From Axinella damicornis (lineage: Eukaryota > Porifera > Demospongiae > Axinellida > Axinellidae): 64,000 bases of DNA. This document shows positions 232 through 31,792 of this stretch, one piece after another. Made by a program: the position numbers and the translations under genes. The stretch is from contig OZ007517.1 of NCBI GenBank assembly GCA_963931865.1, positions 7,304,676 through 7,368,675 on the forward strand, given 5' to 3'. Each line of letters begins with the position of its first letter. Position 1 is the first letter of the stretch. The notes below the pieces were generated by a model. It had not been told where the DNA came from. It ran no database searches and saw only the letters and a list, made by a program, of their open reading frames with translations.

Positions 232-1734
232 GTAAATGAATCACACTACGTACTTAAATCTGGTTCCTAGTGATATAGATATATAAAATGAATGGTGTTA
301 CAAGTTGTGGAATTGATTTATAACTGTGAAAGTTACAGTCATACTGCACATAAAATGTATTCATGCTTACATTGCGTAAGGTGCATGTCTTTATAAATGG
401 CACACAGTTTGCAGAACCACTTCCATCATGGCGCCGGATTTATGCGCCGGCGCCACAGATATGGAATGCCTAAACAAAAAACTCTGGAACATCTGTAAGC
501 GATTCTGCACCGTACGTTCTTCGGATGAAGTTTTCTGCATCTTTGGAAGAAAACTTCTGATTTTCTTAAGGAGCCTTCCGATTTTCCAAAAGAGCCTTCC
601 GATTTACAGCAAAGTTGTCGCACAAATGCATGTTAGAACAGTGTTCTGAATCCTGGCATCAATTTTAAAAATGTGTACTGTACTAGGACCTTTTATATTG
701 GGGATGAGACTGGACCCCAAGCTGAATGCGATCTCAGTTTTGTAACACATTACCATATGCCTGATTCTCCTTTTAGGAGGTTGTGCTACAGGACCTTGAG
801 AAGGCCATTCGGCTTGAAAATGTGGAGTCATTCAATCGACACCTCACGGAATTGGAGAAGCTTTTCCAAGATTGTGACATCACAGTGGGAAAAGCACTTG
901 CTGCTAGTGGTACTCTGCACTATGCTGCAGAGGTTGGGTCCATTCCAATCATGAACACCCTGATTCAGAAGGGTGTAGGTGAGGCACCGTTATGGGCTGA
1001 GTAGTGCGTTTTTCAAGATAGTGTGTTATAAGAAATTGATAGAGCCTGCCGTATGATATCCATGCATAGTACCTATGTACATAGATTCGTTTGCAGGCCT
1101 ATACCCAAGTGGAAGGCAGGGAGAGATTGAATTAGCTATGATGCCGTACTGTGAGGCCTACGCCAATTTTCTTGAGCTTAAATTTGATAATGATTCATGA
1201 AATTGAGTGAATCAGATAGCTATGTGGACGGCGTTGCGTCAATGATGACATGAAGGATGTCCCATTAAGGTTTATTGGGGCCCAACTGCAATTCAGTTTG
1301 TAAATGTCACACACAGGCCTTGTATCTTCTTGGAATGTTTGCCGTAGTCGTGCGAAAGAGTGCCCTCCCTTCACATTTGGCTCAGTTTCCTGCAGATGGT
1401 CAAACTTTACTTCAGTGAGTGCCCACTATAGTCTTGCACGATGGCATCAAGAGTACGTGTTGGCTTGTGTGGTAGAAAACGCAGGGTTTTGCCTCTCATT
1501 TCACCTATGACCGACAGCCTGAGGGCAATAGAAATCAACCCTTTCATCATTGGCAGGTGTACTGAACGCTCTATGGACTAGTTGCTGCGGAGAGAAAACT
1601 GTAGCTACTGTGCTCCGGAGACTAATCTGGCATCTTTTAACTTAAGTAGCTGCAGCAAATCGCGGCTGTTGTGAAGAGTGACAACAATAACCAACTGCAC
1701 ACAAGTACAAACCATCAACATGGGCACTCTTTCA

Positions 1735-1772
<38 letters not shown>

Positions 1773-4700
1773 CCCCCCCCCGCCTCTTTGTGAACATGTA
1801 AGGCGCACCACCCATGGATACTCTTTGCAAGACTATGGTAATTTTAGAACCTTATGCATACATCATTAGTGAACCCGGACTATAGTGCTTTGGTTTCAGC
1901 ATGAAGTTGCTTGTTTCCCCTCTAGATGTCAATACCATGTCAGGTGTGACCCCCAGGGATAGTAACTGGGATTTTGAAATGAAGTTTAAAGTGTATGTGG
2001 TAAGTGAGTAACTATGGCATCTGGAACTGGTTTGAGTTTGATTATAGGTAGCGGACGTTGGCCACCCACAAAATAGCCCTATTATCATACACTTCTCCCT
2101 GCTTCCATTTATGCATGGCCAAACCCTCCCAGTTGACTTGCTTAATAGAAAATCTAATATGAGATCCATGAAAGATTGATTTCCATGCTAATACGTTCAG
2201 CAGAAAATAGTATAGGGACAGACAGATCTGTCCCTATACTGGTGAAATGGCAAGACACATACAATATACAGAACGTCGAACAAAAGAAGTAGCTACCATA
2301 CAGACAAATATAAAAAGGTATTGTCAGCAGCCTTACATAACCAGTGATGAAAGCATTACGCACAATCCTCCTGCATATACATGGACAAAGTAGAATAAAC
2401 TGTTTCATATTCTCCTCCATCAGTGCACTCCCCTGATATGGGCAGCTGCGATGCGCAGTACTGATGCAGTGAAACATCTTCTTGACAAGGGAGCTGATGC
2501 CAACATCAAAGATACCGCGGAAGGGGTAAGTGAATGAGACTACTGCCGACACAATATTTCTGATTAGGAATAGTGATTGCTGGCACACAACTGCATGAAT
2601 GCTCTGGTTGCAAGGAAAACAGCAATACTGTCGGTCATGTACCACAGGACATTTCCTAGTATTTCCTGCAGAAGAGTGGCAGCGAGATGACTTGTATCGT
2701 CGACGTCAACGCAACGGTGACTACCGACTGAAGTTGCGCACGTGTAGTTTAGATTTTCCAGTAGACGCTCACCAGGGGGCGTTAAAACGAGTCAAACTAC
2801 CCAGTACAGGAACTTCGGCGAAAAGAAGGGGGAGGGTGTATTTTCGAAGGGGGCGTATTAGCGGGACACTACGGTACTTGGCAATTAAATGCATTGGCCC
2901 AAGGAATTACTTAGATCTTCTGATCTTTTAATTTGGTGTGAAGTAAAAATCTTCCTGCATTTTCGTCAATGGTTCTGCACCTTACCTCTTTACTACAGTA
3001 CAATAAGTGAGCAGATAATGTCTTCCTTGAATACTTGGACGTGCACAGGTACATTATGGCATGGGCCCAGCAAACAAATTTGGACTTGATTCTGTTGCTG
3101 TTGTTGATTCGGAAACAGCTATATTATCCGGACAGTTGTGCGTGTTTTCATACGCTGCATGCTCCCTGTTGCTTCTCTGAAGGAGCTTTCGTAGATACTT
3201 CTGCTACATTGGTTAGCTCCAAGATCCCCTCCACTGCACGCTTGATTTCACCACTATAGCATCCTCTGAAGTGGTGTAGGAACCTGGGTGCTACAGGTGC
3301 TGGTGCACCCATAACATTTTCAGATTTCATTATCCTGCAACATACGGTGTGTTTCGAACTCAGAATTACAAGATCACCCCATATTCATTTACCAGTTGGT
3401 CTCGCATGGTGCACTCCCTATTGTAGACTACTTCCTATGCCACTGCTCTGGTTGTTAGTAATATTGACTACTAGAATAGGAATAAGCTGACACCGGGGCC
3501 TGAACCTATTTATGTTACCAACCAGCAATCATACTATCTGTGAAATTGTGGTAAAATTTTGTTTCTGCCAGAGAACTTCCCTTCACTGGGCAGCTAGGAC
3601 AGACAATCACATCGCAGTGAGATATCTCATTGAGAAGGGAGCAGATGTCAATGTCCAAACTCGCTTTGGGGTAAGTGGCCCGACAGTTCTGTTTATGTAG
3701 TGGTTTACATGCTGGGAGTCGGTAAAAGAGAGGTAGATAGGTTGGTAAACTAACATTTCAATTTGTATGTTTAGTACTCTGTGTGTTGGCACTCTGCATG
3801 TAGCAGTGATTGCATGTGACATGCTAAACGTTGGAACTGGACCTTTGGTTGGGCAGTCAGTGTTGACTGTGTAATTTCCTTCTCTCCTTCAGAAAACGGC
3901 CCTGCACATGGCAAAAATGGAGCACCATAAGCAAACAGAACAGTGTCTAGTTGAGCTTGGAGCTGATGACAGCATCAAAGCTGTAAGTGGAGACTATTAA
4001 CTGAACATTAGTAAAGGATTTACGGCAGTTACTGGAAAGATGTAAGTTAGCTAGCTGGCTGGCTTGGATCTTGCTAGGCTTGGATCTGGCTTGGGTTGGA
4101 ATTGGCTTTGCTTGGATCTGGGTTGGATAGCATTTAGCTAGCTTGATTAGGATCTGGATCTGGCTTGGCTTGGATCTAGGTTGGATAGCCTCTAGCTTGG
4201 CTTGGATCAGACTTGGCTTGTATCTGGCTTGCAGGCTTGGATCTGGCTTGGGTTGGATTGCATCTGACTTGGATCTGGGTTGGATAGCATCTAGCTTGAT
4301 CAGGATATGGATCTGGCTTGGCTTGGATCTGGGTTGGATAGCATCTAGCTTGATCAGGATCTGGATCTGGCTTGGCTTGGATCTTGCTTGGCATGGTTTG
4401 GGTTGGATCTTGCTTGGGTTGGATTTGGCTTGGGTTGGATTGCATCTGACTTGGATCTGGGTTTGGATAGCATCTAGCTTGGCTTGGATCTGGGTTGAAT
4501 TACATCTGACTTGGCTGGAATCAGACTTGGCTTGGATCTAGGTTTGATGGCATCTAGGTTGGCTTGGATCTGGCTTGGGTTGGATTACATCTGACTTGGC
4601 TTAGATCAGACTTGGCTTGGATCTCATTTGGATAGCATCTAGCTTGACTTAGATCAGACTTGGCATCTTGCTTGGCTTGGATCAGACTTGGCATCTGGCT

Positions 4701-7700
4701 TGGCTTAGATCAGACTTGACTTGGCTTGAATCTGCATCTACATAATATTGTTGGTCATGCCTCTCCTAATAAAATTAAACCCATACCAAGCCAAGCCAGA
4801 TGCAAGCCAAGCCAGATCCAAGCCAAGTCTGATCCAAGTCGAGCAAGATGCGATCTAACATAGATCAAGTCTGATGTAGATGCTAGCAAAGTTCAAACCC
4901 AAAGAAAGTCTTTCTAGTGGTGTTTAAACCTCTCATCCACAAGCATTGTATGAACCAGCTAGCAATCAACCCTTGCTCCAATGTACCTACGTAATGCAGC
5001 TAGAATTCGTCAAAAGTACGCCCATCCTCCTTTTTCATGACAAGTTGTTGTACAGGGTCAGTTACTGCTCGAAAGTATGCCCACCCAATTTCCTTGAACA
5101 GGGAAATACTGTATGGAATGGCTAGTACTGTGAAAAAGGTTGGACTGCAAAAGAAATAATCGATAGCCGGCTAATGTGGTAATTATCATTGTGTAATCAT
5201 TGTGCATGACATGAGACTGTACATGCTCTGTGCTTGCATGCTTGTATCTTTGTGTGTGCAACCGCCTAGCATAGCACTAGCAGCACACTACGGATTTCTC
5301 AGAAAACAGCAATTGGCAAAAATCAGTCCTGAAAATTGTTTGCGTGCTCCACGTCACCATTCCTTTCCAAATACGGCAAATCACTTAGTCTGCTAACTTG
5401 ATTTCCTCTCTCCATCTTCTGCTAAGCCACAATACTGCTAGGCCTTGGCGGATTTTGCTCGAACTTTTACCTATTTTTCTTTTCTTTTTTCCCCTGTTAT
5501 TAACCTGTTACTCTTTTTAATTCACCTATTTTTCTCAACTATGCTGGCATTGATTTTGAAAATTTACATTCAATACACGTTTGTAAACACTTGAAAACTG
5601 ATTGTGAGTGACACTGTCGCCGTGACAAAGCATCAACTACAACAAGCTACAGGCCATGTGTTGCACTAGTCAATATACTTCTGAGTAGTTCTATCTAATA
5701 CGTAGCTATGGCCTATGTAGCTAGCTAATACGTAGCTAGTCTAGTAGTAGTCTACATTGCTATTTCTGAACCTGTACCTGACAGTGTTGTTTCAAGATTA
5801 CAAAACCCTATTCTTCTCATCAGAGTCAGAAAGTGTACCTATTTTTCCCAGCATAATTCACTATGCTCAGAAGCACCTATTTTTATGCCAGCAAAATCCG
5901 CCAAGGCCTAAATACTGCCAAATGGGCCCTTTGCTCTTTAGCTTTGCTGCAAGCTTCGTTCAGCCAAAACGTACGTAGATACAGTAGACTAAGTATGTTC
6001 TAACGTGTGGTTTCATTACCTGCCCTCCAAACCACACAATCTAGTATATGGAGAACCAGCTACTATTCAAGGGACACTATATACAGTGGACTGGGGACCG
6101 GGGACTGGGGACCCAGGACCCGGGGACCCGGGGACCCGGGACCTGGGACCCGGGGACCCAGTCCCAGGGACCGGGGAACCAAGGAACTTCAGCTGTTATG
6201 GGAGACAGAAATGCAACTACAAGCAATCTGTGCTAATGTAAAAGCACGATTATGTTGTTACCATGAGTATGCAAGTCAGCTTTGCACAGCTGGATTAATA
6301 CTTAGCCTCATTCCCAGGCCATAATCCTGGGAACCAGGCTAGATTAATATAAGGTTATAATAGTTATTAATAACGGAATTAAAGTTCAAAGTGCAGTGCT
6401 ATAGATACATGACAACAGTCAAATGCTTCTCTGGAGGAGCCGGAGAACGAGGTATATACATGAATATCTGATTATATTCTGAAGTGAAAAAGTGTTGTAG
6501 ACAAGCTAGAGGATAACGCTGTATGCTCTTCTGATTTGTGCCAAGTTGACTTGCATACTCCAGGCAACGATATAACCATGACTTATAGTTGCATTTCTGT
6601 CTCCTGTAACAGCTGAAGATCCTTGGGTCCCCGGGTCCTCAGGTCCTCGGGTCCCCGGGTCCACTGTTTATAGTGTCCCACTATTCAATGCTGGTTTTAT
6701 TGTGCGTATTTTCTAGTTTAGTGGGCTGTATGCTTGGTGATCAGACTACATCTGAGGTGTTTGTGAACCCAGTGTTGCAGCAAGTTACCAAAGGCCCTTC
6801 CACCCTATAGGTGGATGAACTAGTGGAGAACGTCAAGAATGCCATTAAAGCTAAGAATTTGGAGTCATTCAATCGACACCTTGCTGATTTGGAGAAATTT
6901 TGTGATGAAACAGTGTTCTGCCGTCTTCTGTTTTATGCAGCAAAGGCTGGGTCCATTCCAATGATGAATATCCTGATTGAGAAGGGGGCAGGTAAGGCAC
7001 CGGGAAAACTTAAGAGTGGTATATTTTGTTCATGCACTCATTCCCAGATCCAACCCGCACCAGAGAAGAAGGACCTGGTATTCACTGTTTGCTCATGTGG
7101 TCAATTTTGGAGAAATCTTTATCTGTAGTACGTATGTGGATCAGTAACCATCATTTGTTCCTTGCCCTTTCATTTTAGCATAGACAATTATGCGAATGAT
7201 GGATACAGGTCACTTCTCTCTGCACCTGGAAATGAGGACTGTGTATCTATCGTTGGATTGAATATACCATCCACTGCTGTTGGCAGAGCATCTGCTTAAA
7301 CACTTGCAGGCCATTGATGCCATAAGGCATCGTGAGGCTTTCAGCTCGATACGTATGTCTGATATGTCGATTTGACAGGGGAGGTGGGTGGCTTCACCCA
7401 TAGGGTGGCACACCTGTAGACATGCCTTGAGGGCCATTTCTGTCCTTTTAATTGGTACAGATAATCAAGACATACTTGGCAACTAATTGTCATGCACGAA
7501 TAGCCAAGGGCCCACCAGAACCAATGCAGTACACATGAATGTCTAAGCTCATAGTGGTGGGAATGAGCTTTGGATAAACCATGCTGCCCCCCTCTTCATA
7601 AAAGCCAGCTATATACTACCCTAGATCCTGAGGTTAGTGGTCTCCAATGTCAGGGGTTTGTGGCTTGCACCTGTGGATTTCTACCGACTTGGAGATCGAG

Positions 7701-10700
7701 TTACCTGTCTGCTTATGGTGACCAAAATTACCTCTGGGAGAGGTTTTGAGCCCAACAAGCCGTGGGAACTAAAATTGGGATGTGGCTCCAGAGCCTGATC
7801 CATTTGGTAGGCACAGACACAGCATAATTGTATCTAACTGTCTGAAGTATGTGCCTAGTCCTAGGGGCCGGGTTACAAGTGCCCTAGGGAGACTTTGAAG
7901 TCGAGCAATGGGACCATCACTGCTCCTTGAAAAACATTGATATTTCATAAACCATAGTGAGAGATTCAAACGATGCTGAGCTAGCTGGCCAGTATGAAGA
8001 CTTTCTGTGTCAATACTTTCGTGATGCAATTTGTGCTGCTAGGAGTGTTGTTGACTCACTCGAAGATGAATGGCATGTTGTTGTAAAGGCATAATTATAT
8101 ATCCCACTTATCTAAATCTCCTAGAAGCAGAGGGTGGTTTATGGACCATAATTCCCTCCCTCTGGGTACTTGTAGGGAATATTAATTTTGGCGCATATAA
8201 TTCCCTCCCCGGGGCTATACATGTAGCTACTAACCAGTGATGTTTGTAACAATATAATATGTGTTGAATTGCATCTTAAAAATTTACGCTGAGAACCAGA
8301 ACGCTTATGGATCTTCCAGGGCTGCATTAAATCCGGAGCCATGATGGAAGCGATTCCATAAATGCACATCATTTTAACTGTGTACCATAGGTTCCTCCAG
8401 TTTAGCATGAGCTTGTCACAGTCCTATCAAGGTCGACAGCCTCACTTGAGCAAGTGACATGTTTCCCCTCCAGATGTTGACACCACTGGCACCACTGCAG
8501 GAGTGGCTGGTGAATTTGGGGTGGTAAGTGAGTAGATATGCACTCTGTTGGTCAAACCTTACAAACAAACTACCTAGCAACCAGCTGTTTGGCTGTGGAT
8601 CTGTGGATGAACTTTGTTTCATTCTCTCCATCAGGCGACTCCCTTGCATGTGGCAGTTAAGAATGGGAATCTTGAAACAGTGACCTACCTCATTGACAAA
8701 GGAGCTGATGTCAACATTAAGGGTGGCCCTGGAGTAAGTGAATGAAATGATGTTGGTATATTTGCAGGAATATAACCTTATTAGAAGGTGGTCATAGTCA
8801 TGTTCAAAAAGAATGCTATCAATATAGTCTAAATGCTTGGTTTGGTGATGCTGTTTTTTGTGCTGTAATTTTTGAGGGAGTCCAGATGTGATTTTCTTTG
8901 TGTGCTGGCCGGCATGGGTTCTGTTCACCGGTGGAACATCACACCCACTGGCATGAAGGAGACAATTTTGTGCCAGGGATTTCAGAAAACTTTCAACATG
9001 ATATTGTAGTAACCACCTCAAAGGACTAGCGAATTTCCCTAATTGCAACGCCAGAAATAGCTCCACGGTACTAAAAATAGCCACACGATGCCAAAAATAG
9101 CTCCACAGCACCAAAATTAGCCACACAGAGCCAAAGATAGCCCCACGGCACCAAAAATAGCACCACTGTCCAAAAATTAGCTCCACAGTGCCAAAAATAG
9201 CCACACAGTGTCAAAAATAGACTCACAATGTCAAAAATAGGCCCACGGTGTCAAGAATAGGCCCACGGTGTCAAAAATAGGCCCACGGTATCAACGCACA
9301 GTGTCAAAAATAGGTCCACAGTGCCAAAAACAGGTAACTAGCAGAGCTCTCAGCCATCTTGTCTCATCCATGAGCACGAGGTAATGAATTGTGCATGCAA
9401 TAGTTCATTCAATTAGTCTACTAATTGTTCAGAGCCTAGTAACCATGTAATTAGATGTACTGAAACGGTTATCATTTAATGGTGGTATCTTAAGAGGATA
9501 CTATAGGCGATTGAGACATAGTTTTTGTGCCCTGTCATATGCCCTTGCCTGGAAGTTTGGGCGACTTAGAAGTTTGCTTGTATGGTGTATGAGGACTTGA
9601 GATAATTATATGATTTTAACATCTGTGTGTGTTCTGTGCATGACTTTACTTAACCCCGAACTCCACGAAGAATGTTCGAGAAATCTTCCAGAACAGCTGG
9701 GGCTACAAGTGGATGCAATCGGGGAGCAGCAGTTGAAGTGGACGCAATCGGGGAGCAGCAGCCGCAATCGGGGAACAGTTGAACGGGGAGCAGCAGCTGA
9801 AGCGGACACAATCGGGGAGCAGCAGTTGAAGCAGATCGATGCAATCAGGGAGCAGCAGTTGAAGCAGACACAATTGGGGAGCAGCAGCTCTACAAAGAGA
9901 GCTGTCCGATGCCGGATTACTCACGTAGGGGAAGTAGCTGAGCGAGCGAAGCTACTTGTAGAACTTTGTTTACAGAGCCACAACAATTTAGGTTTGCTGG
10001 CTTTCTAAAGGGCAAGATTAGTCTCAAAGGACTGTAGTTTGTAAAACTTTAAGGGACCAACTTAGCACAGTTTAGCTGTATATGAATACCTTACAACATG
10101 ACTTGTCCTGCTGGATTGAGATTGAGAACATGTATACTGACTGATTGTGCCAAGAAGTGCTAGCCTGAGTGTACCTAGCCTCGTTCCCAGGCTGTTTTGG
10201 GAGGGAGAAACGGCCTAGCAACTTCCGCGAGTTCAAACAAACTGTTAGATGTGCTCAAACAAACTGTTAGATTCAGATGTGCTTCTTAAGTTCTTTAGAC
10301 CTGAGGATCCCTCTCTCTGTTGGCATTTGACACGTACACATGTACAGAGCATTGAATCTTATACTGCATATTTACGGTACCACTGTGTATACCGTATAGC
10401 ACTTACATTTTGCGGGTCTAAATTGTTGAGAATTTCGCGAGTTATTCGCAAAATTATTTCAACAAAAATTTTGACATGTGTTGTGTGCCTACAGCTATGT
10501 GGACAGTATTCCAACGTACACGCGCGATGGCTAGCTTGGTGGCTCTGTTTGTGTACTTCAACAGTGAGGATGGACAGTAGTCGAAGTGTAAGCTTCCGGT
10601 TCCACATGGAGAGGTACCATCATGTGCGATATCTGCCATTGCTGAAGCTGCCAGCTCGATCCAGCGCGGCGAAGGTCAGGGGAACGCCAGGTATCTGAAA

Positions 10701-13700
10701 ACGAACTCTGAGAGCATTGAAGTGGGGAATACAGTCGCAGAATACTACGCACCGGCGATGTGGTCTGTGGTAGTTGAGTCCAGCGTGCATGGGTGTCTTC
10801 AAGTGCAGTACACCACGCCCATTGTGTGGGTGTGGCGCTTTTACTGTGAATTCACAAAATTTTTTCAACGAAATGTTCTCGGAGAGCAATTCGTGAAAAT
10901 TTAGATCCGCGAAATATAAGCACCATACGGTACTATGTAATGTCCCGATGTCAATGCACTTTCTTGGGCATAATTACACGTACTAGAGACAAATAGTGTT
11001 GAGATTTGCGCACCATGTTAGGGATGCATTTTTGACCAAGGACGGAATACTAATTGATTTTTATCTGGGACTTCCGCATATATTGGGCAGTCACCAGCAG
11101 CGTTCTTTGAGTGAGGATTGCTGAACGCCTTAGTGTGAGGCACATAATCGTGCGCATGCAGGCAGTCGTAGTCTCAGGTTGCACTTGTATTTAGTTATTT
11201 ATTGTATGTATTTATCTATGTCCGTCCGTTACGTTTTACGATCAATATTATGAGGGTTTTTTGCATAGTTTACGTACTTCCTAGCATGTGGCGCACATTA
11301 TGCATGTGTGTATGTCCAGTAAGGATTAAATGGCATTGTGACACACGGAATGTATACAGGGTCATACATTCCAGTGAAGTCCAGGGATGTCCCATTCAGT
11401 ACCAGAGAGCAGGTTCTCCCTTCAGTAAGGTTCTAGCACACTGTTTCTTTCTCTCTTTCAGGAAACTCCCCTGTATTATGCAGTTGATCGTGGCCATCTG
11501 GACATAGTGAAATACCTTGTTAGCAAAGGAGCTGATGTCAATGCCATGAGCAGGCGTTGGAATGTGAGTGAATCAGACTACTACTGACTCCATGTTAGTA
11601 TATGCTGTTTGGGTAGGAGTACAAGTTGCCATTCATTGATTACTGGCAATATGAAAGGTGGCCGTTTGACATGCCCTGGATATAATGACATGAACTACTA
11701 GCGTATGGCAGTGAAGTAACATCCAACTCCAATACCATATTTGAGACATGTCTCCATTGAATTCCAGCCTTATCCGATTATACATTGAATTTAATCGGAT
11801 GCAATCATGTATCCCCAAACATTCGATCACTTAATGCAACGTACACAGACCAGATGCAAGGAACTTTCTCTGAGATTTTGCAGCCTCGGGAAACCTCTTG
11901 ACCCCTCTGCATGTCGCAGGCTCATTTCTTGTCACCATGGCTGATTTGAGCACTACTCAGGGTCAGTAAGGTTGGGTTGGAAATTGAAGTTTCGCTGGCT
12001 GTAGTTCAGAACCAAGCAGCAGAGAACCACTAAACTTTAAACTCAAAGTGTGAGGAAAAGTGACTGAAGGTCCCGCCCACATCCAGTAATATACGCAGAC
12101 AAGTATACTTGATAAAGCACGTCCAAGCGACTGGGAATGAAGATGAAAGTCATTATAGATTCTGGGGCATGGCATCCTGGATCGAGGTCAGTCTGTCCAA
12201 GTCTGCATCCAAAAATTGGTGTCTTCTATGGAACTACAGGCTGTTTAAGTTAGTGTCCAAAATCATTCACGTTTGGACGACAGTATTCTTGATCAGACAG
12301 TCCTGCATGAAGGGACGGTCATCTTGCGCATAACATACACATCTACAGTCTGCATTAGGGTGATCTTAACCGTTTACTAGCTAATGACGCCTTAAGGTGT
12401 CATGAGACTTTCAGCTTCATGATGTCACATCCGGCAATGTCCTTGAGAGATAGGATCTGCGCCAGCAGAAAGGGCGGGGCAGGGGGAGGTGGGTGGGTGC
12501 ACCCGAAGGGTGCAAACAGCATGGCCGCGTTTGGGCTCAGCTTTGAACGGCCCTTGGTTGGAGCCGGGTAGGCCATTTCTCGGGTTTTAAGCATAAATGG
12601 ACTTAGAAAGTAGCTGTCTTGCCTTGTAGGCCCTCCATTTCCAGTGTTCATGGTCAGTTTTTTAGCTACGGCAGGTTGGCCACTTCTCGGGAGGCTTGAT
12701 TGCAAGTTCGTTAGTTGGTGGGTGTGGTTAAGTCACGTATATGCTTAGTGTAGCTGAAATTAGCAGTTTCGAGCCCAGCAACGCCAGGGAACAGAAATTA
12801 GGGTATGTTTAAGTGTTCTATAGACTGAAAATGACCTAGAGAAATAAATTTAGGCCCTAAAGAGTTAACCTGCGATCCATACAACTTGTTGTTCTTGAGA
12901 TTATTACTTAACCACAGCTAGCAATGAATCTCCATGTGAATACTGGCTGCAGACACTCAATATTGCCGTATACTGGGAAATTTAGGCAACCGTTTTAATT
13001 TGGCGATTTTGGTGATTCGGAAGTCAGTCGCCAAATTAAATGATCGGCCAGATCGACTGTCGGCGCGCGTGACCAGGCAAGACCACCTTGAAATTGCAAG
13101 ACCCAACGTACTACCTGCTGAGCAAGGCACTGAATTAAAGCATACAGGCTGCTGAAAATTATTATCAAGGTCATGGCCTACTGTGTACCTGTGTCGTGCA
13201 TTACTTACTGCCACAGCGTACGCATCCTGGACAGTGCATGCTGACCTGATGACCTCGCTGTTATAAATTGATATAAATTATTGGGGCGAGCCTGAGCGAG
13301 CCCCACATAGACGTGTAAAACGGAATCCGTGTCTGTATGTATGTATGTATGTATGTATCATACGTACGTATACCGTAAATAAACGATTCTGCAAATAACC
13401 GAAAGTCCCTTGCGTCATGATAATTCACACGTGCTCAGCGCTCGATTGCTCATCGATGTGTTCTGAGACTCAGAGTGGCACAACTTCGTGAATCGTGTAC
13501 TCCTTGGATGGCTATACGGACGGAGACCACTCACGAATCTACCTCTTCAATGGATACAGCGATGCACGCTACCCCGCGCACAGCAACAAAGACTGCATGT
13601 GAAAGTGCACTTCTGACTGATCTAGCTAGCCCTACATTTAAGTTCACCGATCGCAACTCGCGGCTGCACTGTGTTGAAGTCACTGACTTGTAGACCTAGC

Positions 13701-16700
13701 TACCTCTGGTCTTCAATGGCTACAGCAGGAGCGCATGAGCCGCCGAAGGCTACAGTCATGGGAGCTACTGCATAGCGAAAGAAGACAGCGAGAGAGCTTT
13801 CATCTGCTCGTGCCACATGTAGCTAGCTATACATGATCACCGTGTACTGTCTAATTAATTACAAATGTACTGTGATATAAATTATTACACAAGTAATAAA
13901 AAACATTTGAAAATGTAACAGGATGTAGGGATACCAGAACGGCAAAAAGTAAGGAAACAAGGCAGGGATGATCGCACAAAACAGTGAAGTATACAATCCC
14001 CCTACATATCTTTTTTCATTATACACGTATATGGAAAAAGATCTCTGTAGGGGGGTTGTATACTTCACTGTTTTGTGCGATCATCCCTGCCTTGTTTCCT
14101 TACGTTTTGCCGTTCTGGTATCCCTACATCCTGTTCAAATGTTTTTTATTACTTGTGTAATAATTTATATCACTGTACATTTGTAATTAGTTCGTTGCTG
14201 TTCTTTCATTTGCACTACTTTTCCCTGGTTAGATTGTTATACTTAGCTATTATATTAACAGGGTACATTTCTATTTAGCATATGCTATTATGTATCCTAT
14301 GCCTTATGCATAAAGTTACATAGGAAAAAAAAAGAAGAAAAAAAAAAGAAAAAAAAAGTGAAATGCATGTTGCAATGCATGCACTCGCTCAGGCTCACCC
14401 CACAATGTTATACATTCTGCTAGTTATCACCTACTGTGTACCTGTGTCGTGCATTACTTACTGTCACAGCGTACGCATCCTGGACAGTGCATGCTGACCT
14501 GATGACCTCGCTGTTCACCGATTGTGGGCCTCCAGATGCCACTGAAAACGTGATGGTGACGACACTGCTCTCCATTTCGTACATCTTTGTCCTGGGGCCG
14601 GGGGGTTTCACGATCTCGTGTCAGAAGTACAAGTCGCGTCGCGAGCCCACGTCGCGCTTGCGACGCGCATAGTTATGTCATACTTTTTCGCCAAATTTTA
14701 AATTAAGCTACAGAGCTCGGATTCTAAAGGCCATCACTTGATGACATTGATGTGGAGCTAGCTAGTCACTTGCGAGTGGGCACCTGCGAATGGAGTGAGT
14801 ATTCGCATCTATGGGTCTACTAACTCACGAGGCAAATGCTTGTGTGTGCTACCTCACATGAGATCTGTACTGTATTTCAGCAACCATTACTGTGGCTAAC
14901 TGTGGATAGTGATCATGAGTCATGAGTAGTGAACGTAACACTTTGTTTCTTTCCCTCCATTAGAGGACTCTCGTGCACCGTGCAGTGTTCCAGTACGCCG
15001 GTCTTGCCAGACTGGAATGCCTTTGTGAGCTCAAAGCTGATGTCAACGTTAGAGATCATAGAGGGGTAGGTTAATGGGACCACTACTGATTCAGTGTACA
15101 TTGAGTTGGAACTTCCATATACCCTCAGCTAGCTCTTCTTTCTTAATTCTTTACCAACCAATGATGGCAAATGCCACCATTAGCTTCCGTAAGGAAATAT
15201 GTGGGGAATGTAATACTAGGTGTTATACTATAACACAAGGTTTTGCTTGTTTAAGCTGTTTCTTATGGTTGGTAAAGAGTGAACCCTACCCATTCATGGG
15301 TGGGGGTTATATTGCAGTCATATAGTGTCTGTCTGTTACTGCTTACCACCCACATTAATTGTTTACCCTACAGTTCCAACTAAATTACAATTACAAAGTA
15401 CTTGAAAAGCACTTAGTTCAAACATTATAAAGTGGTTTATAGCTCACCACGAAACTTACGTTGGCACTTCTGGCAGAAAATCGAGACAGCAGGTACGTAA
15501 TTATCACTGTTACAAGTGTGTTGGTCAAGTGCTGCTTCTAACACTATCAGCTACTGCAACAGGCCTGCCAACCTCAGAAGTTTAAAAACCTTGAGATGTA
15601 TATAGCATGCGGGTATTTTAAGACAAAAATACGCAAATTTGTGCAAGTTCATGTTTTCATAATATTTATACATACTTTTTCTGTACAGCATCATATTGTT
15701 TTGTTACACGTTTGAATTTTTTGACTTTTAATATTAGGTTGCATGCACAGAAATCGGTGTTTGCCAGTCTCTAGCTATCAGATGACAAGTTTCCATTTGA
15801 ATCAAAACTTGATCAACAGGGCATTCCAATGAAAAAAAATCCGTTCTTCCCCTCCATTGGAATTAGTGTTTACCAAGCTGGCAACACTCGACTCAGCTTT
15901 TGACAATGACTCGAACCTAAGAGATCTGTGTGCATTCTTCATGCCTGAAAGGTAAACCCATATGACATCCATTCTGTGGTATTTGTTTTATGTTACCATG
16001 ATACCATCTGTGCCTTGAGACTTGATGCAGGGCTGCAGTCCATGTCACTTCCACTCGAGTCCTTGCGCAAATTGTGCGCGCATGCACATAATATATGGAC
16101 TTTGCTTTATTGCCTGGTCTCATCCCCAGGCTTGCATGTGAACGAGGCTGCCAAAATACTGGTTCCAACGGCCACCGTAGTCTAGTATGTGTCCAAGCTC
16201 TAGCCTCTCAGCATTTCCGTGAGTTTGAGCTGGTTAACCGTGAGAGCGTGAGATCAGCACTGAATCCGTGAGACTCACAGATTTTCCGTGAGAGTTGGCA
16301 GGCGTGCTGCAAATGTAAGCAACACAAACTGAACTAGCCTTTGGATGCATGCAACTAAAACATGGAAAACGGACTGGAAAACGGACCGGAAAATGAACTG
16401 AGTTTTCTCATGCCCGGGCGCCTGATCCTGCAGTGAACTAAAGTTTAGTAGCACAGGTCTGCAGTCCAGCAGACAGTCACCAGTGGCCACGGGGTTATCC
16501 GTGGTATCGCTCTGAACATTGCCGAGCCGCCCGAGTGCCAGCCTCCCGGGTCTGGCTTCGCCAAACTTGACTGCCCTTCTGTACAATACTACATGAGTGC
16601 TTAAGTAACATTGCTGCATTGCTCCTATGCACTGGAGTATTCGTGACAGGCAGGTTGGCATGCAAGACTGAGTTGATTGTGGTGTAATTGTACTGACCTG

Positions 16701-19700
16701 AGCTGTGTACCAAACTTGAGAGAGGAGTCGTTGTTTGGCTGCGAGGTGCTGGTCACCGTACATCTATGGCTGCGCAGACCTGTGGCACTGATGATCGTCC
16801 GCTGGACTGCGGACCAGCTGTACTAAGCTAAACTGTAGTTTTACTCTGCGATTGAGTAGATGCCGTGTCTAGCACATGGAAACCCAGTCTGTTTTCAGGT
16901 CCATTTTCCGGTCCGTTTTCCAGTCCGTTCTGTGATTTAGTCACGTCCCTAGCCATTATGACCTTTGACACCAAGGCGGCACACGCATGGTGTGCAGGTG
17001 AGGGTTTGGACTTTAGTGCTTTTCAAATTGACGGTAAATCTGTAATCTGTGAGTGGTTGCTAGGTTCCAGTGTGATATACCTAGCAACCACAGTTTGATA
17101 TACCTAGCAACCACAGTTTGATATACCTAGCAACCACAGTGTGATATACCTAGCAACCACAGTGTGATATACCTAGCAACCACACCAAGTGTGGTATACC
17201 TAGCAACCACAGTGTGATATAGCTACCTTGCAATCACAGTGTGATATGCTTAGCAACCACAATGTGATATGCCTAGCGACCACAGTGTGATATAGCGTAC
17301 GGTCCCCAATGATGACCACGTTTTCACTAGTTTCTTCTATTGTGTACACATGCGTTCACTATACCCACGGGTCTGCATACATATACTTGCAACCAACCTC
17401 TGTCCTTCTACAGGTAGCAACATCGTTCCGTATCTAGGTCTGAGCGAACGAAGCTGAGGGGTCTAGTACTCAACGTTCACGGTGGCCATAATAGGGGACC
17501 GTCCCCTATTATGGCCACCCCATGCTAACCAGGGAACCAAGGGTTAATTCTTTAAAACTTTAACCCTGCATTGACCCCCACCCCTACTTGACAGATGGTG
17601 AAGATTTCACTGTCCTAGGACATGCTGAGCCACCACAGGAGCTTATTATATTGTTGTACTGCATCATCAAATTCAATACAGCAAGTATAGTAAAATAAAC
17701 AAAGGTGTTGACAATTAAACTTCCAGCAACGACAGAACTTACAAAAATACTCTACAAACAGTCATAGATACCTAGAAATACAAAAATGGAGCAACACCAC
17801 CTGTCTCAACTCAGTAGGAGCCCGTCGCCCGAACATCGCGAGGTGAGAAAAGTCAATTTCCGATACAGGGCGATATTTCTCCGAGAGCAATAATGCTGAC
17901 ACCAACTTTTTTGTGCCCTACGTTACCTTAGTTATACTGCGCATGTGCAAAAATACGGGAATCTACCAGTAGTCAGGAATGGCGAATACACGTAAGTGGC
18001 CATAATAGGGGACTGGCCATAATAGGGGACCGTACGCTACCTAGCAACCACATGAAGTGTGATATATCACATAGCACATGTTACATACCTACTATCATTT
18101 TTTTTTAACAGAAAACTCCTTTGCACCGTGTGGCTGAGGATGACAGGCATGACAAGGCAAGATACCTGGTTGAACATGGTGCTGATGTTAACATCAAAGA
18201 CAACTGTGGCGTAAGTGAATGAGACTAAGTGTAACTGGTGGCGCAGTGAGATCTTGTTAACATTGCAACTGGGGTCAAATATCAAGGATGAGGATGGGCT
18301 AAGTGAATGGGACTGGTTGTGTCCAGCCTCTGTTGGATCTCAGATTCTTGTTGCTGTAACTGCCATTCAAGCTGCTGTTTTGTTTGGATTGTGTCTCTCC
18401 TCTGCTACTCTGGGGTGCTAAGGTCTGGATTATTCGATTAACGTTATACGAAAAGTTCACGGAATTACGTAATAGTGCACGGAGAAAGCTAATGGCGGTG
18501 TTTAATAATGAGCGAAGTAAAGTCTGCTAGTTTGTCTCTCTCGGCGATAGCTGTAGCTTCGCTTTGTGCTAGTTGTAGTCATCACCTTTGGTAGTTCCTT
18601 GTGTGAATCCGTGCCGTCACTCCTGTGTTGAGTTCAAACGGCAGTACATCAGTCAATCATGGCCGCGGAGTTAAGGACCTATATAGCGACGATTCTGGAG
18701 GAGCGCAGCGGCTAGCTTGGAGTTGTAGTACAATAATTATGTTTCAGACAAAATGTACACAAAATAGCCTCTGCCTGGCCTTAATGCCCCAGAGTAGTTA
18801 TTGCTGTTTTGTGTAGGAGTGTAGCATTCATTGATTACTGGCAGGACATAAGGTAGCCAGCACTATACGCTTGTATACCAACTGTGTAGCTATTGTTGCT
18901 AGTTGCTGAAAAATGCAAGGCTAAATAAAACTAAATCAAGCTGTGGGTGCTGATATAGAGGATACTGACTAAACCTTGTTATGTTTCTGCATCAGTGGAC
19001 TCCCCTACGGTTCGTACCTAGCTACTATCATTGTTTTGACAGAAAGCTCCCTTGCACTATGCGGCTAAGGCTCAGGATAGGCATGGCACTGCAAGATACC
19101 TGGTTGATCATGGTGCTGATGTTAACATCAAAGACAACAGTGGGGTAAGTGAAGTGTAACTGGTGGCGCAGTGAGTTCTTGTTAACAAAGCAACTAGGGT
19201 CAAGATGAGGAAGGGCTAAATGAATTGGACTGCTATTAATTGCTGTTTTGTGTAGGAGTATAGCATTTATTGATTACTGGCAGGACATAAGATAGCCAGC
19301 ACTATATGCTTACCAACTGTGTTGTTATGATTGCTTGTTGCTGAATAATACAAGGCTAAAGTGAATGAATTATTGTGGACTTGCTACCAGCTTTTTGACT
19401 ATACGTAGCTATGGGTATTGATATAGAAGATGCTAACCAAACCTTGTTATGTTTCTGCATCAGCGGACTCCTCTATGGTATGTGGTTCACCTGGATGGAG
19501 GCTACAAGTCACAACGCGGTGACTTGGTGAGATGTCTAGTTGACAAAGGAGCTGATGTGAACATCAAGAATAAAGATGGGGTAAGTGAGTGGGACTATTA
19601 TAGTCATTGTGGAGTGTAACAATTTATTGATTACCGACTAGACACAAGACAGCCTGCAGTATTCATTTAGTAACTGTGTGGTTTTCATGTGGTCCTGGCC

Positions 19701-22700
19701 ACCAATTACTGGGGAACGATGACAGCATCACTGGAGTTACCATAAATGGCAATAGTCAAACCTGTCCTTCTGGAATGGCTAGTTACTTTTGTTAAGGCGC
19801 ACCACCCTTCAACACAAAAGTCAAGGGCATTCAATTCCAGCACTGAGCCTGAGCTGAGCGCTAGAGACTCTCACTCTACCAGTGCATCACTTCCACCCTT
19901 TCATTTGAGTGCTATAGTTTACCATGCAGTCAATTTCACCTTGCTGGTGCATGAAAACCCAAGTGTAGCATCTTACGTTAGGGCCACTGTAGCATTGTAG
20001 TTTGCATTGTGCTTCTACTTCTAGGCATTGAGAAACAAATAAGTAGTTTTTGCGATCAAGTAGCATGGCGGGAAGGGAAGCCATATGAATGCATGGACGG
20101 TATGTGTTATAAAGCATTTGTGTGTCTGAGGCAACAATGGTGAAGCTCTCTTGGAGTGAGGGGTGCAGCTGGCAGTAATGTTTTTCCTCAAATTGAGTTG
20201 TTCAGACTACATCTTAGAGCACTAAGCAGTAATGAGGTTGTGCTTAAGCAGCCAGCTATACATATAGGATTTGTACGTGGTGCTAATCTTGTTTCTTTAT
20301 TTCAACAGAACACTCTCCTACACGCTATGGCTAAGAAAGGCAATCATGCTGCAGTGAAAATCCTTGTTGAACTTGGAGCTGATGTCAAAATCCTAGACAA
20401 GTGTGGGGTAAGGGAATGTGGTTACGATAACTGTTGACTTTTAGGGCTTGAGTGTGACAGTTTAAGGGATCAAACCGTGGAAGCTGGCGACCAAGGGACC
20501 CCGTACAAATCAGCATTTATACACTAAAGGCCTGAAACTGTACCAAGTGATAAAGTTCCAACTATAGCTACTGCCTTTACTATGAAGGATCTAATTCCTA
20601 ATGGGTTAAATTATGAAATTGTGTAATGTTAGGTCACTTGTGTGTATGCAATGACATTAAGCTGAGCTATTGTGTTTTATAACCAGTATGCCATTAAAAG
20701 TAGCATTGTTCGAGTTGAATATTAAAAGAGGGTACTCGGGCACGTTAACAACTGGATCTAATTAATCAACAATCAACCTAATGCGGAAATGCAGGAAATT
20801 ACTATAGTGTACTGAGAAGGCTAATGGTGGTGCAAAATAATGAGCTGAGTAAAGTCTACCAGTGTGTCTCTCAGTGTGATAGCTGTAGATTCACTTGATG
20901 GCAGTTGTAGTCGTTGTTTATGGGAAATTCAAACGGTAATACGCTACAGATTCGGTATGTCTGACTTACTTCATGAGTTTAGCTATGCAATATACATAGG
21001 CGCCGGGTCCAGTCCAGCCGGTCCGGCCATGGCCGGACTATTTCAGGGCTGTGTTTTTTAAAAACAAAATAATAGGCATTTATATTAAGTAGGGCGAGGT
21101 GATCGCCTAACCATAAATGCACATGGAGCTCGTTAGAGAATCTGAGAGACCTACCTGCGTAGTTAGATCGCAAAAAGTTCGGCCTTACCGCACAAAGATA
21201 CGGGATCCTTGGTCTCGTTCTCAGATTGCAATATTGAGATCCGGTACGCCATGTGCACGTACCAGACACCGCACGCCACATACATAGCGCGCGTAGCGCT
21301 GCCGTGACAGCAGCAGTGACTATGCAGTGATGGCACAACTGCGTGGTCTGCGCGATCTGACTCTATCGAACCTTCCAGGAGAACCACACCATCCTCCACT
21401 CTCGTTCTCGTTCCTAAAACGGGCCTTCACAGCAGACAAAGGTAGTCAATAGGTCCTTTCAGTGTACGTGGTTTAAGTCGTGGCCTGATGCTTTTCCATA
21501 TCAAAAAATTCTTGCTATTTCATCCCAAGATTGCATCAGAAATGATCTCAGAAGGTGTAAAAAGCCAAAACTTTCCTGGGAGTTGGCTCCCCAGACCCCC
21601 CTGCCTGGCACACTTCGTGCGCTTATGTCCGCCGGACCAAAGTACAATGACGTCCTCCACAACCATGGCCTGACCATCCAAAATTTGCTTCCGGCGCCCC
21701 TGATATATCCATCGCAGTGGGCATGGCACTTTTGCAAGTAGCAGGTGAATGAATGTAACTATCACGGTGAAAACTTGGATAATATATGCAAATTTGTTTC
21801 ACGTTGATGCTGGTAGTTCAGTCAGAATCGGTTTAGCAAATGCAATCCAGGAAGTTGCATTTGTACCATGCAATATGGCATACTCAAGAAGCCATAATCA
21901 CACGGTTGCAATTGCATGTGTCCGTTGATGACATCATCATGCAGATAAGGGGTGGAATAGGCAAAAAAATATCAACAGTATACTCAGATTTGGTAAAAAT
22001 CAGCTGCAAGAGTATTGGTTCTAGTCCTTAACTATCCTGAGTCCTCAGAGAACGCTATAGCTATTGTGCTGATTTGCAGCTATCAAGCTAACTGTGTTGT
22101 GTTGTAGTGTTGATGATTCATTTCGATTATTTCTCAGATGACCCCGCTGCGTGTGGCAAAAAGGGAGAACCATCAGGACATAGTGGAGTACCTCATTGCA
22201 CAAGGAGCTGATTCCAGTGACTTACTCAAGGTCAGGTTTCAATCCGTTCTCACTATTGTTTGCTCTGTGTATGGTTTGTTGGAGCCCACTATTGTTGTGG
22301 GTGTGCAATGGTGCTCAGGGTTAATTAAACACTTTTCTGATCTTGGATGCCGTATACTGTCATGCCAAATCATGTCAGAGACTATAGACACTCATAAGTT
22401 TAATAAACACATACTGTAGTCTCTGTTAATACCCCCCCCCCCCCCCCGATAGTTCCAGCCTAAAGTGGGGTGCTATGTAAGCCTACACAAATTATTATGA
22501 CACTGCTAAGGTTCATGTTCACATAGCAACACAGTTACATTTAAAGTGCGAAGGATCGAGAGCACTGTTCATGGTCATCATGTTTACAAAGCTGCGTGGT
22601 CTCCCTACATTGGCAAGAAGAGCTGCCACTTCAACGTGAGGACTCGGACATTCACGATGACTTAGCTATAGCTATCCTCAAGAACAGCCATCGGAAGGGA

Positions 22701-25700
22701 GGTAATTGCATATATGCCATGTTGCATGGCTCAATGCAACTACCTCCCTTCCATCATAACATGCTATGATTTACCAACTTACACAACCTGCTGACACCAC
22801 CTAGCTATAATAGCGAAACACACTATATTGAGTGCACCACATGATGCAGTAAGTTGTAGCGCATACAATTCTGGCTTGGCCTACATCGAGAACAATCCTG
22901 GAATGAGATGCACCCAGCTTCTGCTGTGATTTCAGTGTTGTAAATGAGGTACTGTATAAACATGCACCTCATTTATCGTTTAGGAGGATGCTCTGGAGGA
23001 CCTCAAGAAGGCCATTCAAGAAAGTGATGTGGAGTTATTCAATCAGCGACTCTCTGAGGTTGAGAACCTTTTCAAGGACGATGACAATGCAGTGAGAGAG
23101 CAACTAGCTGTTAGTGGTGCTCTGCGGTGTGCTGCGGAAGTTGGTTCCATTCCAATGATGAATACCCTGATTCAGAAGGGTGTAGGTAAGGCACTGTACA
23201 TACCAACCAGCTGAACAACTGTAATTAATGTTCATGCAGCGTAGATGTCTTTTTGAGTCGTCTTGTGCGCCTGCTCTAAAGCATACGTACATCGTTACAC
23301 GCTTTGTGCCCAGGCCTCCATAATATTATCTCTGTGATCAAATATTGTTTCATTGTGAACTTTGTGTGCGTGCGTACTCTGAAGGGTACTGAGGTCAGGG
23401 CAGGTCCATGCACTAGTGCTCTGTTAGCAAAAAAGCCGCACAACACTCCACACAGCACAACTGTGCCACAAGGTATAATCCACGGATCAATAATGTGATT
23501 CCGCATTACGTGAAATTGATTGAGGCATGCCTTAACAAGCCTGACCAGTATCGATCCCAGGTGGCAGCCCAGCAACACCCAGCATTCGTGAGTCAGTCTA
23601 GTATCTGCTAGCATCATTCACTGTGTGACCCTTGAAGCATTTCATTTGCAGTTCTGTCATACACCCATGGTGGGAAATTGAACTAAAATTGTCACTGAAC
23701 CAAACCACTCAGATAGGATTGTTTACATCTGAGATGTCTCCATTTTGCCATCTGAAGTGCTATTTGGATAGGGTGGTGTCTGTTCTGTTTCCAGTGTGTG
23801 GCTACTATTTTAAGTGTGCATGTGCTGTATGTACTTAACTAACTCCATTGTGGTAGGGAATGATCGTGTGCTGACTCGCATCCAAAGTAGGCAGCCCAGC
23901 TGTAAGCCTTGAATTTCCTCCCGTCACTGTTGATAGTGTGCTGGAATCTTTGATTCACCACACATGGAACGACCAGCCCCCAGATGTTACAGTGCAGCAC
24001 ATCTAGTTTGCCAGTCCCACCTACTAACACGGACAGCTTCGCCGCAAACCAGAGGGCCTTCGAAAACCTGAAGGCTACTTACAAGTATTGGAAGGTTTCA
24101 TCCGAAGATGTAAAAAGTTTCTTCTGGAGAGCACTGGCACCTAAGTATCCGAAATGGTGCAGCTTCGATTACAGACCATCGTTTGGGCCTTCTGGAGCTG
24201 CGTTCAGGTCTTCTGGAGCTGCGTTTGTAATGGAAACCCTGCATGACCAATGGCAGAAAGGTTTCCAAATCTTGGCATCAATTTTAAAGATGCATACCAT
24301 ACCGTAGTTTTCTTTATACCCCTGGAGAACCAGGGAGAGTTGTAAAAAGTGTCCAGACTTTGAAATGTAACCCAATGTTTCTTATAATGAAATGGCTTAT
24401 TATTCCTCTAGATATCAACGTCTTTGGGATTGACGGAGAGGTACGTAAGTGAATAATACCAAGTGTGTACAGCTGGTTTTTAGTAGGAGTGTAATCAGTG
24501 CTCAGTGGCGTGTCATTGGATAGCGAGAGTGATGTTAATTTTAAGCACAAGATGTGTTTTTATAGCATGAATTGTACTGCTGTTCTGACGTTGAGGATTA
24601 ATACACTCTGGGGTGCAGAATACACACTATTATCATACACCTACATTTCAATAGTGTACAGCAGTCAATGGGAAAGCCTGGTATGCAAGCGCAGTTGATA
24701 AAAACGTACTGTAGGTCACGTGAAAAATCCGTATTAGTACTGTAGGTAAAATGAGAAATCCGTATTATGTATAGTAAGTCACGTGCGCTACAGCCAATCT
24801 GTGATAGTTTCATGTCAGAGACTAGCTGGTACTGACTACCTTTTGGGCTGCTGAAGAGGGCTAACTTACATCTCGATACTTCTGGAAGTGGAGGTTGAAC
24901 TCGTTTGTATAGTCGGGCATCCCGTTTTAAGTGGACCGTACAACTGCCAGTTATTGTCGTGGACCGACCGTACAACTGCCAGTTATCGGCCTTGGCTTGG
25001 TTCGCAGGCCTTCTCACCCAAGCGTTTGTAGCTTGTCATACTAACGTGAATGGTTGGCAACCAGAAATGAAAGTATTGTCGCCAAGCAAGCTATGGTGTA
25101 ACGCGCATTCGCTATGTTCATTGGTACCAAGCTATACCGGAAACATATCACTCGTTTTTCGCCTTCGGCATTGTTACTCGTGCTTCGCACTCATAACAAT
25201 ACTACGGCAACAAACTCATCCGGTATAGCTTTGTACTATGGTGATACTTAATATATTCTTTAATAACTCTGGGGCGCAGAATACACACTATTCTTGTAGT
25301 TCCTACTGAGGGAAATCCCGGCACATCATGCAAAAATTGGTTTACATAGGCAAATTTTCAGCAAAAATGTAAGTATTACAGCAATAGGTCAACTGGATCA
25401 TTGATTGTTTTGTTTTGCTCTGAGGCAAGGTTAGAGAAAGCTAATACAATATGTGTTGTTGTCTCAATTGCTTCATACTGCAGAATGTGCCAGGAATTTG
25501 CTCAATGGGCCACATAGGTATGGATGCGCTATGAAAGAATAAAATGCAAGAAGGGAATTCGAAGTGTCATTCAAGCACATTTCCAGCAGTGGTAGTGGTA
25601 TCTTGATCTTGAAGGCCACCTTGATCAGGGCCGTCGGAAGGTCTTTGGAGGTGGAGAGGCTATTATTTGTTGGACATGAAGTGGTTAGTTCTGCGCAAAA

Positions 25701-31700: not shown

Positions 31701-31792
31701 GTACACACCTTAAACTTCTTATGAACTTCTACAGTGTCTACCCTTTTGTTCATATGCATGTATATATTATAGTCTCCCATTCATACACTCTC

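What the first reader, a model, noticed from the sequence alone, without database searches (positions are those of the whole stretch)
777..24440. Three-block internal architecture of the ankyrin domain
Exons at 777, 6811 and 22984 are paralogous helix-plus-half-ankyrin exons. Each is followed by a short phase-1 linker exon starting DxN, a run of ankyrin exons and, in blocks 1 and 2, a special block-ending ankyrin lacking DVN. The N-terminal domain therefore seems built from repeated super-modules, which is not described for standard TRPA proteins as far as I know.
Basis: partly seen in the sequence, partly recalled or inferred. Interest (0 to 1): 0.75.

Follow-up and report, generated by a model that had tools for sequence, protein, structure and literature searches.

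The report
Channel built from repeated ankyrin blocks
A predicted TRPA-type ion channel gene of an unnamed animal, probably a sponge, carries four consecutive copies of its start-capped ankyrin domain where one is usual, and related places in the same genome appear to carry one to four, so the sensor arm of this channel seems to have grown by copying a whole cassette of exons.

Summary
The exons at 777, 6811 and 22984 are paralogues, each followed by a phase-1 linker exon; a fourth copy lies upstream of the window (position -3586), so the gene has four blocks. A predicted 43-exon model runs in frame from a start exon at -6263 to a stop at 56300: 1803 aa, four ankyrin blocks, then a TRPA-type pore. 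A tail-to-tail inverted copy (pore 97% identical) keeps the four blocks. The A exon matches 29 places in the genome; 13 pore-bearing loci carry one to four by position. The block-ending ankyrin is a real position-specific class (9 of 9 recognised with the test gene left out, 0 of 46 others), though 'lacks DVN' does not define it. Start exons, where found (8 places, five weak), never lie between blocks. Between the inverted copies ankyrin structural positions are conserved (omega 0.24-0.32) and variable positions are not (1.2-1.3); for blocks I-III alone the interval includes 1. The A exon's extra half aligns best with the N-terminal cap region of TRPAs, weakly, suggesting repeated duplication of the capped domain. 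One transcript, separate folding and function are inferred; no RNA was available.

The parts
139..231 (+). last (block-ending class) ankyrin exon of block I; block I's A exon (-3586..-3391), linker (-2308..-2262) and two ankyrins (-1745..-1647, -1324..-1226), and the gene's start exon (-6263..-6189), lie upstream of the window
777..978 (+). A exon of block II: helix pair plus first ankyrin helices, phase 0 in, 1 out
   Evidence: AF2 model of the exon, five helices, mean pLDDT 81.6
1926..1999 (+). linker exon of block II (DVN...), phase 1 in, 0 out; completes the ankyrin begun in the A exon
2424..2525 (+). ankyrin exon II.1
3572..3670 (+). ankyrin exon II.2
3893..3982 (+). block-ending ankyrin II.3
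6811..6991 (+). A exon of block III
8474..8523 (+). linker exon of block III (DVD...)
8635..20407 (+). six ankyrin exons III.1-III.6: 8635-8733, 11462-11563, 18112-18210, 19043-19144, 19464-19580, 20309-20407
   Evidence: no counterpart of III.2-III.4 found in the inverted copy
22138..22230 (+). block-ending ankyrin III.7
22984..23185 (+). A exon of block IV
24412..24440 (+). linker exon of block IV (DIN...)
28606..48248 (+). ten ankyrin exons IV.1-IV.10: 28606-28701, 29557-29655, 29844-29942, 31474-31572, 39474-39572, 41637-41741 (least certain), 43398-43493, 45061-45156, 47267-47368, 48112-48248
50437..52365 (+). pre-membrane exons 50437-50555, 52026-52254, 52320-52365
52688..54391 (+). TRPA-type membrane and pore exons 52688-52862, 52931-52984, 53062-53480, 53697-53882, 54323-54391
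   Evidence: Ion_trans E 6.7e-16; TRPA1 E 2e-44
54493..56300 (+). C-terminal exons 54493-54783, 55273-55614 (heptad-like repeats), 56196-56300 with stop

Best explanation
One gene encodes a TRPA-family cation channel subunit of about 1803 aa whose cytoplasmic arm is four consecutive ankyrin blocks. Each block is a phase 0-to-0 exon cassette: A exon (a helix pair that caps the domain, plus the helices of the first ankyrin), linker exon (the finger of that ankyrin), a variable run of ankyrin exons and, in blocks I-III, a block-ending ankyrin. The A exon probably descends from the N-terminal cap of TRPA ankyrin domains, so the blocks arose by repeated in-frame duplication of the capped domain, while single ankyrin exons kept being gained or lost inside blocks. 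Shown: the exons, phases and paralogy, the four-block order in two inverted gene copies, one start exon and one pore set in the gene models read, and stronger conservation at ankyrin structural positions. Inferred: a single transcript, the origin of the A exon, separate folding of the blocks as capped beads, and function. Most likely function: a tetrameric sensory channel in which stimuli (ligand binding or pull on the arms) act through the faster-changing ankyrin surfaces, with the pore conserved.
For: In-frame 43-exon model (with 42 exons; IV.6 added). In this gene, its inverted copy and the C9 gene, tblastn of start exon and pore protein found nothing between blocks below E 0.1. Inverted paralogue with the same four blocks. 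Two-block gene on C2 read from its first A exon into its C-terminal exons: A, 6 ankyrins, block-ending ankyrin, A, 10 ankyrins, pore. Block-end class 9 of 9, false of 46, leave-one-gene-out. Omega at structural and variable ankyrin positions 0.24 (0.09-0.58) and 1.27 (0.71-2.81) in 12 exons, 0.32 (0.13-0.68) and 1.17 (0.68-2.43) in 13. No stop in the shared block exons of either copy (borders of the copy hand-corrected); 15 of 2000 neutral simulations had none. Non-ankyrin half of the A profile: the best five of 118 TRPA windows all align within residues 80-100 of P0130, 0 of 60 column shuffles as good.
Against: No transcript evidence. Whole-block omega is near 1 in blocks II (1.01) and IV (0.90) with wide intervals, and in blocks I-III alone the structural-position interval reaches 1.22 (0.36, 0.09-1.22). 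The cap match to TRPAs is weak in absolute terms (hhalign probability 11-16%), and the best A match among the 177 database proteins scanned is full length in a non-TRPA ankyrin protein (P0050, 14.8 bits). Fold search of the A model found nothing significant (best E 0.85). The last exon of the first C9 block is degenerate. Last-block A exons cluster only weakly on the tree (117 of 2000 within-gene shuffles as good).
Confidence: 0.7

Rival explanations
1. Blocks I-III are separate upstream ankyrin genes (or genes that lost their pore exons), and only block IV belongs to the channel.
For: No RNA data. A exons without a pore match nearby exist at C2:16803611 and 16822236. A 40%-identical, insignificant start-exon match (E 0.49) lies inside block 2 of the C2 gene.
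Against: Phases join without a break. The start exon was found at 8 places, never between blocks (7, five of them weak at E 0.006-0.24; one more on C9). No pore or start relic between blocks below E 0.1 in three genes; the lowest off-target hit, E 0.077, is antisense inside block IV of the inverted copy. Same order kept in the inverted copy.
Confidence: 0.13
2. The arm is one continuous ankyrin stack; the A segments are irregular internal repeats (kinks), not caps of separate beads.
For: The end of A resembles ankyrin (weak), and solved ankyrins and designed ankyrins cover A positions from about 13-20 to 61-65 at E 1e-5 to 0.1.
Against: A follows a block-ending class and precedes a linker of 9-24 residues; its non-ankyrin half aligns best to the N-terminal cap region of TRPAs.
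Confidence: 0.35
3. The block pattern is chance: ankyrin exons duplicate freely and A exons are scattered among them.
For: Single ankyrin exons do duplicate with their introns (IV.3-IV.5 at 85-89%, III.3/III.4 at 80%).
Against: Ordered classes at block ends (0 of 5000 label shuffles for the block-ending class, 6 of 5000 for the exon before it); the A exon is shared by 29 places.
Confidence: 0.03
4. The N-terminal blocks are decaying and the long protein is not functional.
For: Whole-block omega near 1 in II and IV; blocks I-III alone do not reject omega 1 at structural positions. A relative on C10 seems to have a broken first A exon (two weak part-matches), and one on C3 has a stop in its pore exon.
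Against: No stop in either copy and net frame kept in the shared exons of blocks I-III; structural positions conserved over all blocks.
Confidence: 0.1

Closest known systems
TRPA1 and other TRPA channels (solved chains 7ykr, 7or0 and others named TRPA1)
   Same: Membrane and pore region, N-terminal ankyrins; the N-terminal cap region of TRPAs resembles the A exon's helix pair, weakly.
   Different: Among 57 TRPA-like homologues scanned, near-full-length A matches appear in 4, once each and at the N terminus, at insignificant scores (top two matches per protein printed); this gene has four A segments.
Sponge TRPA homologues (Amphimedon P0121, Ephydatia P0122 and P0140, Dysidea P0124)
   Same: 30-37% identity over the pre-membrane and membrane region; TRPA diversification in demosponges is reported (PMC7385117, passages seen).
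   Different: No A-module match above 8.5 bits in these four; P0121 may be an incomplete model.
TRPN/NompC (about 29 ankyrins in one stack, recalled)
   Same: Similar total number of ankyrins (23 ankyrin exons plus 4 in A exons = 27, with IV.6).
   Different: Here the run is divided by four A segments. Not compared by any search.

Membership tests
TRPA channel | Ion_trans membrane domain closest to TRPA | tested here: met
   Ion_trans E 6.7e-16; TRPA1 E 2e-44 against TRPV3 4.5e-8
TRPA channel | N-terminal ankyrin repeats joined to the membrane domain by one open frame | tested here: inconclusive
   Met in the exon model; not confirmed by RNA
TRPA channel | Nearest full-length proteins are TRPAs | tested here: met
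   24 of 57 hits carry a subfamily A name; apart from one 'sTRP5' and one name cut short, the rest are unnamed or generic, and no name of another TRP subfamily is shown
TRPA channel | Placement inside the TRPA clade on a TRP tree | not tested
   No tree of pore regions was built
TRPA channel | Electrophile-sensing cysteines and pre-S1 pocket | not tested
   No call
Canonical single-cap TRPA ankyrin domain | One N-terminal cap followed by one uninterrupted repeat run | tested here: not met
   Four A exons in the model and four in the inverted copy; that A exons act as caps is inferred

The most novel reading that the evidence does not exclude
Each block is a separately capped, separately binding ankyrin receptor domain, and because every block is a phase 0-0 cassette, the animal can change the inputs of the channel by splicing blocks in or out and, over evolution, by adding or losing blocks: a modular multi-input sensor family in an animal that (if a sponge) has no neurons.
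Probability: 0.15. Interest if true: 0.85.

Novelty: new variant of a known kind. Interest (0 to 1): 0.55.

Why it matters
TRPA channels are usually described with one capped ankyrin arm (recalled). Loci that carry one to four copies of the whole capped unit give a natural series for asking what the arm does in gating, since the pore exon changes less (72-97% identical to this one at the other A-bearing loci) while arm length and surface vary. It also shows a way in which a very long ankyrin arm can be built in cassette steps.

Tried and rejected
Whole-protein homology search was swamped by unrelated ankyrin proteins; repeated on the pre-membrane and membrane region. A search for database proteins with the A-IV module (76 residues; candidates limited to about 522-1660 aa) found 114 word-sharing candidates and none at E <= 10, so whether other sponges have the module is open. 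Fold search with the 67-residue A model was inconclusive. Pfam scan of the 29 A exons gave only weak matches: ankyrin families in a few members, best E of any family 0.0053 (thioredoxin, one member). PDB profile search with A: the best row (E 9e-18) is a designed repeat protein that sums several weak matches of at most 10.3 bits, then designed and natural ankyrins at partial cover; no TRPA among the 60 of 159 rows shown. The idea that last-block A exons form one old class is only weakly supported. The raw indel count by blastn gave 8 frame-breaking gaps in block exons against 49.5 expected at the intron rate; placed one by one they add up to whole codons inside L-II, III.5 and IV.6, or fall at the 3' ends of IV.2 and IV.4, where the inverted copy's donor is shifted. 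The idea that blocks are former tandem genes with lost pore exons was tested by looking for relics and not supported. In some searches the G1 copy of exon IV.6 was taken 3 bases too short; the right end, 41741, was used. That does not change the sets (IV.6 was left out there and again, for register).

Odds changed after rechecking: main explanation 0.72 to 0.70 and decay rival 0.07 to 0.10 (blocks I-III alone do not reject omega 1); separate-genes rival 0.12 to 0.13 (antisense hit at E 0.077 and weak start match); descent of the A exon from the TRPA cap 0.65 to 0.55 (P0050).

Literature: searches (open-licence full text only) showed no listed title or abstract start about block-wise duplication of the TRPA ankyrin domain; two searches returned nothing. 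Passages of PMC7385117 and PMC11526382 were seen, not the whole papers. Absence from print is not shown.

Full report
What was checked. The window is C13:7304676-7368675 of an unnamed 226 Mb genome. The best database hit over the pre-membrane and membrane region is the Amphimedon TRPA1 homologue (P0121, 37% identity), so the animal is probably a demosponge; that is inference.

The A exons. 777-978, 6811-6991 and 22984-23185 are paralogous (61% identity, E 3e-27; 50%, E 2e-19). Searching the genome with the 777 exon gives 29 matches, E 2.6e-38 to 4.6e-5; a majority-type query gives 35 at E <= 10, including one more full-length A (C2:16803611, E 1.4e-7) and two part-matches on C10 that look like a broken A. 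Four of the 29 belong to this gene, one of them about 3.4-3.6 kb upstream of the window. DNA similarity between A copies in the five pairs tried reaches about 20 bases beyond the exon at most, apart from separate short matches, some of them ankyrin exons. Single ankyrin exons, by contrast, have been duplicated with their introns, so block duplication looks older (inference).

The gene. Joining the exons gives one open frame with AG/GT borders and consistent phases: start exon (-6263..-6189), block I (A, linker, 3 ankyrins), II (A, linker, 3), III (A, linker, 7), IV (A, linker, 10), three pre-membrane exons, membrane and pore exons, a C-terminal part with heptad-like repeats, stop at 56300. In one search the start exon was entered one base late; its true place is given. 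Exon IV.6 (41637-41741) was added because its counterpart exists in the inverted copy. The membrane part is TRPA-like: Ion_trans E 6.7e-16, TRPA1 E 2e-44 against TRPV3 4.5e-8.

The inverted copy. A second gene lies tail to tail with this one (pore C13:7373378, minus strand, 97% identical). It has four A exons in the same order, with ankyrin exon counts 3, 3, 4 and 8 (plus one weak match), against 3, 3, 7 and 10. No counterpart of III.2-III.4 was found. Several of its exon borders were corrected by eye, and one exon, IV.2, is shorter there, since the longer reading meets a stop.

Other loci. Of 72 pore matches, 13 lie within about 60 kb downstream of one or more A exons on the same strand: 4, 4, 3, 3, 2, 2, 2, 2, 2, 1, 1, 1 and 1 copies. 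The remaining match (C2:16822236) has no pore match nearby. This assignment is by position. Only this gene and the inverted copy were read from start exon to stop; the C9 gene was read from start exon into its pore exons, and the C2 gene from its first A exon into its C-terminal exons. The longest distances (C3, 57 kb; C14, 39 kb from its first A) are unverified, and the C3:9743281 pore exon has a stop. Of the 17 best pore matches (E <= 1.3e-62), 4 had no A exon found. The C2 gene reads A, 6 ankyrins, block-ending ankyrin, A, 10 ankyrins, pore.

One gene or several. The start exon was found at 8 places: 7 at E <= 1, two strong and five weak (E 0.006-0.24), and one on C9 (E 1e-4). Seven lie upstream of the first A exon of a pore-bearing locus (on C10 that first A is the apparently broken one), one upstream of a pore without a detected A; none lies between blocks. 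tblastn of start exon and pore protein in this gene, the inverted copy and the C9 gene found nothing between blocks below E 0.1; the lowest off-target hit (E 0.077) is antisense inside block IV of the copy. In the C2 gene, whose start was not held, an insignificant start-exon match (40% identity, E 0.49) lies inside block 2. Without RNA, a single gene remains inference, but these tests favour it.

Block ends. 55 ankyrin exons from eight loci were labelled by position (9 block-ending, 8 next to last, 38 other). Left out: the inverted copy, the terminal IV.10-type exons, and the degenerate last exon of the first C9 block. Leave-one-gene-out profiles recognised 9 of 9 block-ending exons with 0 false calls among 46 others, and 6 of 8 next-to-last exons with 2 false calls; label shuffling reached the observed similarity in 0 of 5000 and 6 of 5000. 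So blocks have an ordered end, which random exon duplication would not give.

Selection. Between the two inverted copies the shared block exons have no stop. Neutral scattering of 177 differences gave a mean of 4.4 stops, none in 15 of 2000 runs. Omega is 0.54 (block I), 1.01 (II), 0.72 (III), 0.90 (IV) and 0.36 for the membrane and adjoining C-terminal part. In 12 of 18 shared ankyrin exons (others dropped for unequal length or register) structural positions give 0.24 (0.09-0.58) and variable positions 1.27 (0.71-2.81). With IV.1 added (13 exons) the values are 0.32 (0.13-0.68) and 1.17 (0.68-2.43); for the 9 exons of blocks I-III alone 0.36 (0.09-1.22) and 0.86 (0.43-2.05). The ankyrin fold thus seems kept while surfaces change freely; for blocks I-III alone this is suggestive only, and positive selection is not shown. 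Raw gap counts are lower in block exons than in introns (8 frame-breaking against 49.5 expected), and the gaps add up to whole codons within exons or lie at shifted donors.

What the A exon is. AlphaFold2 on the exon with the window's two paralogues gives five helices, mean pLDDT 81.6, pTM 0.66: a helix pair, a short helix and an ankyrin-like helix pair. Foldseek found nothing significant. Against sliding windows of 27 TRPA homologues the whole A profile aligned over nearly its full length in three N-terminal windows (starting at 65, 73 and 81 of P0130), though the single best window aligned only the ankyrin half (best 14 and first 24 windows printed). With the non-ankyrin half alone, the best five of 118 windows all align within residues 80-100 of P0130, score 16.1-16.6 against 11.5 for the next, and 0 of 60 column shuffles were as good. 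Among 57 TRPA-like homologues, near-full-length A matches occur in 4, at residues 68-170, with insignificant scores (top two matches per protein printed). Against this, the best A match among all 177 proteins held is full length in a non-TRPA ankyrin protein (P0050, 14.8 bits). I put the chance that the A exon descends from the TRPA N-terminal cap at about 0.55.

How it probably works. Inferred: a tetrameric TRPA channel whose arms are four capped ankyrin blocks with a long loop after the first ankyrin of each. Stimuli act on block surfaces and pass to the pore through the conserved membrane-proximal part. Phase 0-0 blocks could be skipped or multiplied without breaking the frame.

Novelty. 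TRPA diversification in demosponges is reported (PMC7385117, passages). The repeated capped-block architecture did not show in the listings, which cover open-licence papers only. It is filed as a new variant of a known kind.

Noticed in passing
window 53062-56300 and C13:7373378 (minus): Tail-to-tail inverted duplicate of the whole gene, pore 97% identical. C9:4374416 (minus) and C9:4591620 (plus) look like a second, divergently oriented pair with three A exons each.
   Followed up: partly
window 32059-38291: Minus-strand ORF of 1910 aa (32321-38053) inside the intron between ankyrins IV.4 and IV.5, flanked by 161-base stretches 100% identical (32059-32219, 38131-38291): looks like a recent retroelement, Pao/BEL by recalled resemblance; no domain search done.
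   Followed up: no
window 38307-39358 and 40563-41612: 1052-base direct repeat, 98.9% identical, on either side of ankyrin IV.5.
   Followed up: no
window 26197-27310 (minus): ORFs that resemble a hAT-type transposase (recalled resemblance only) in the intron after linker IV.
   Followed up: no
window 58618-60453: 611-aa ORF that looks like a multi-pass membrane protein downstream of the gene, with a similar frame near 62955.
   Followed up: no
L013 and L015 (C14:3873859, 3908094): Two A exons 34 kb apart are 96% identical over 187 bases while their introns hardly align: possible exon-scale gene conversion. The L013 copy lacks the AG expected before its start.
   Followed up: no
C10:10394221-10394378; C2:16803611-16822430; C3:9743281: An apparently broken first A exon, two A exons without a pore match nearby, and a pore exon with a stop: members of this family also decay.
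   Followed up: no
genome-wide: 72 matches to the pore exon, so this genome has a large TRPA-like family. No clear A exon shows near the more distant ones; one very weak match (C7:10441126, E 1.6) lies near C7 pores.
   Followed up: no
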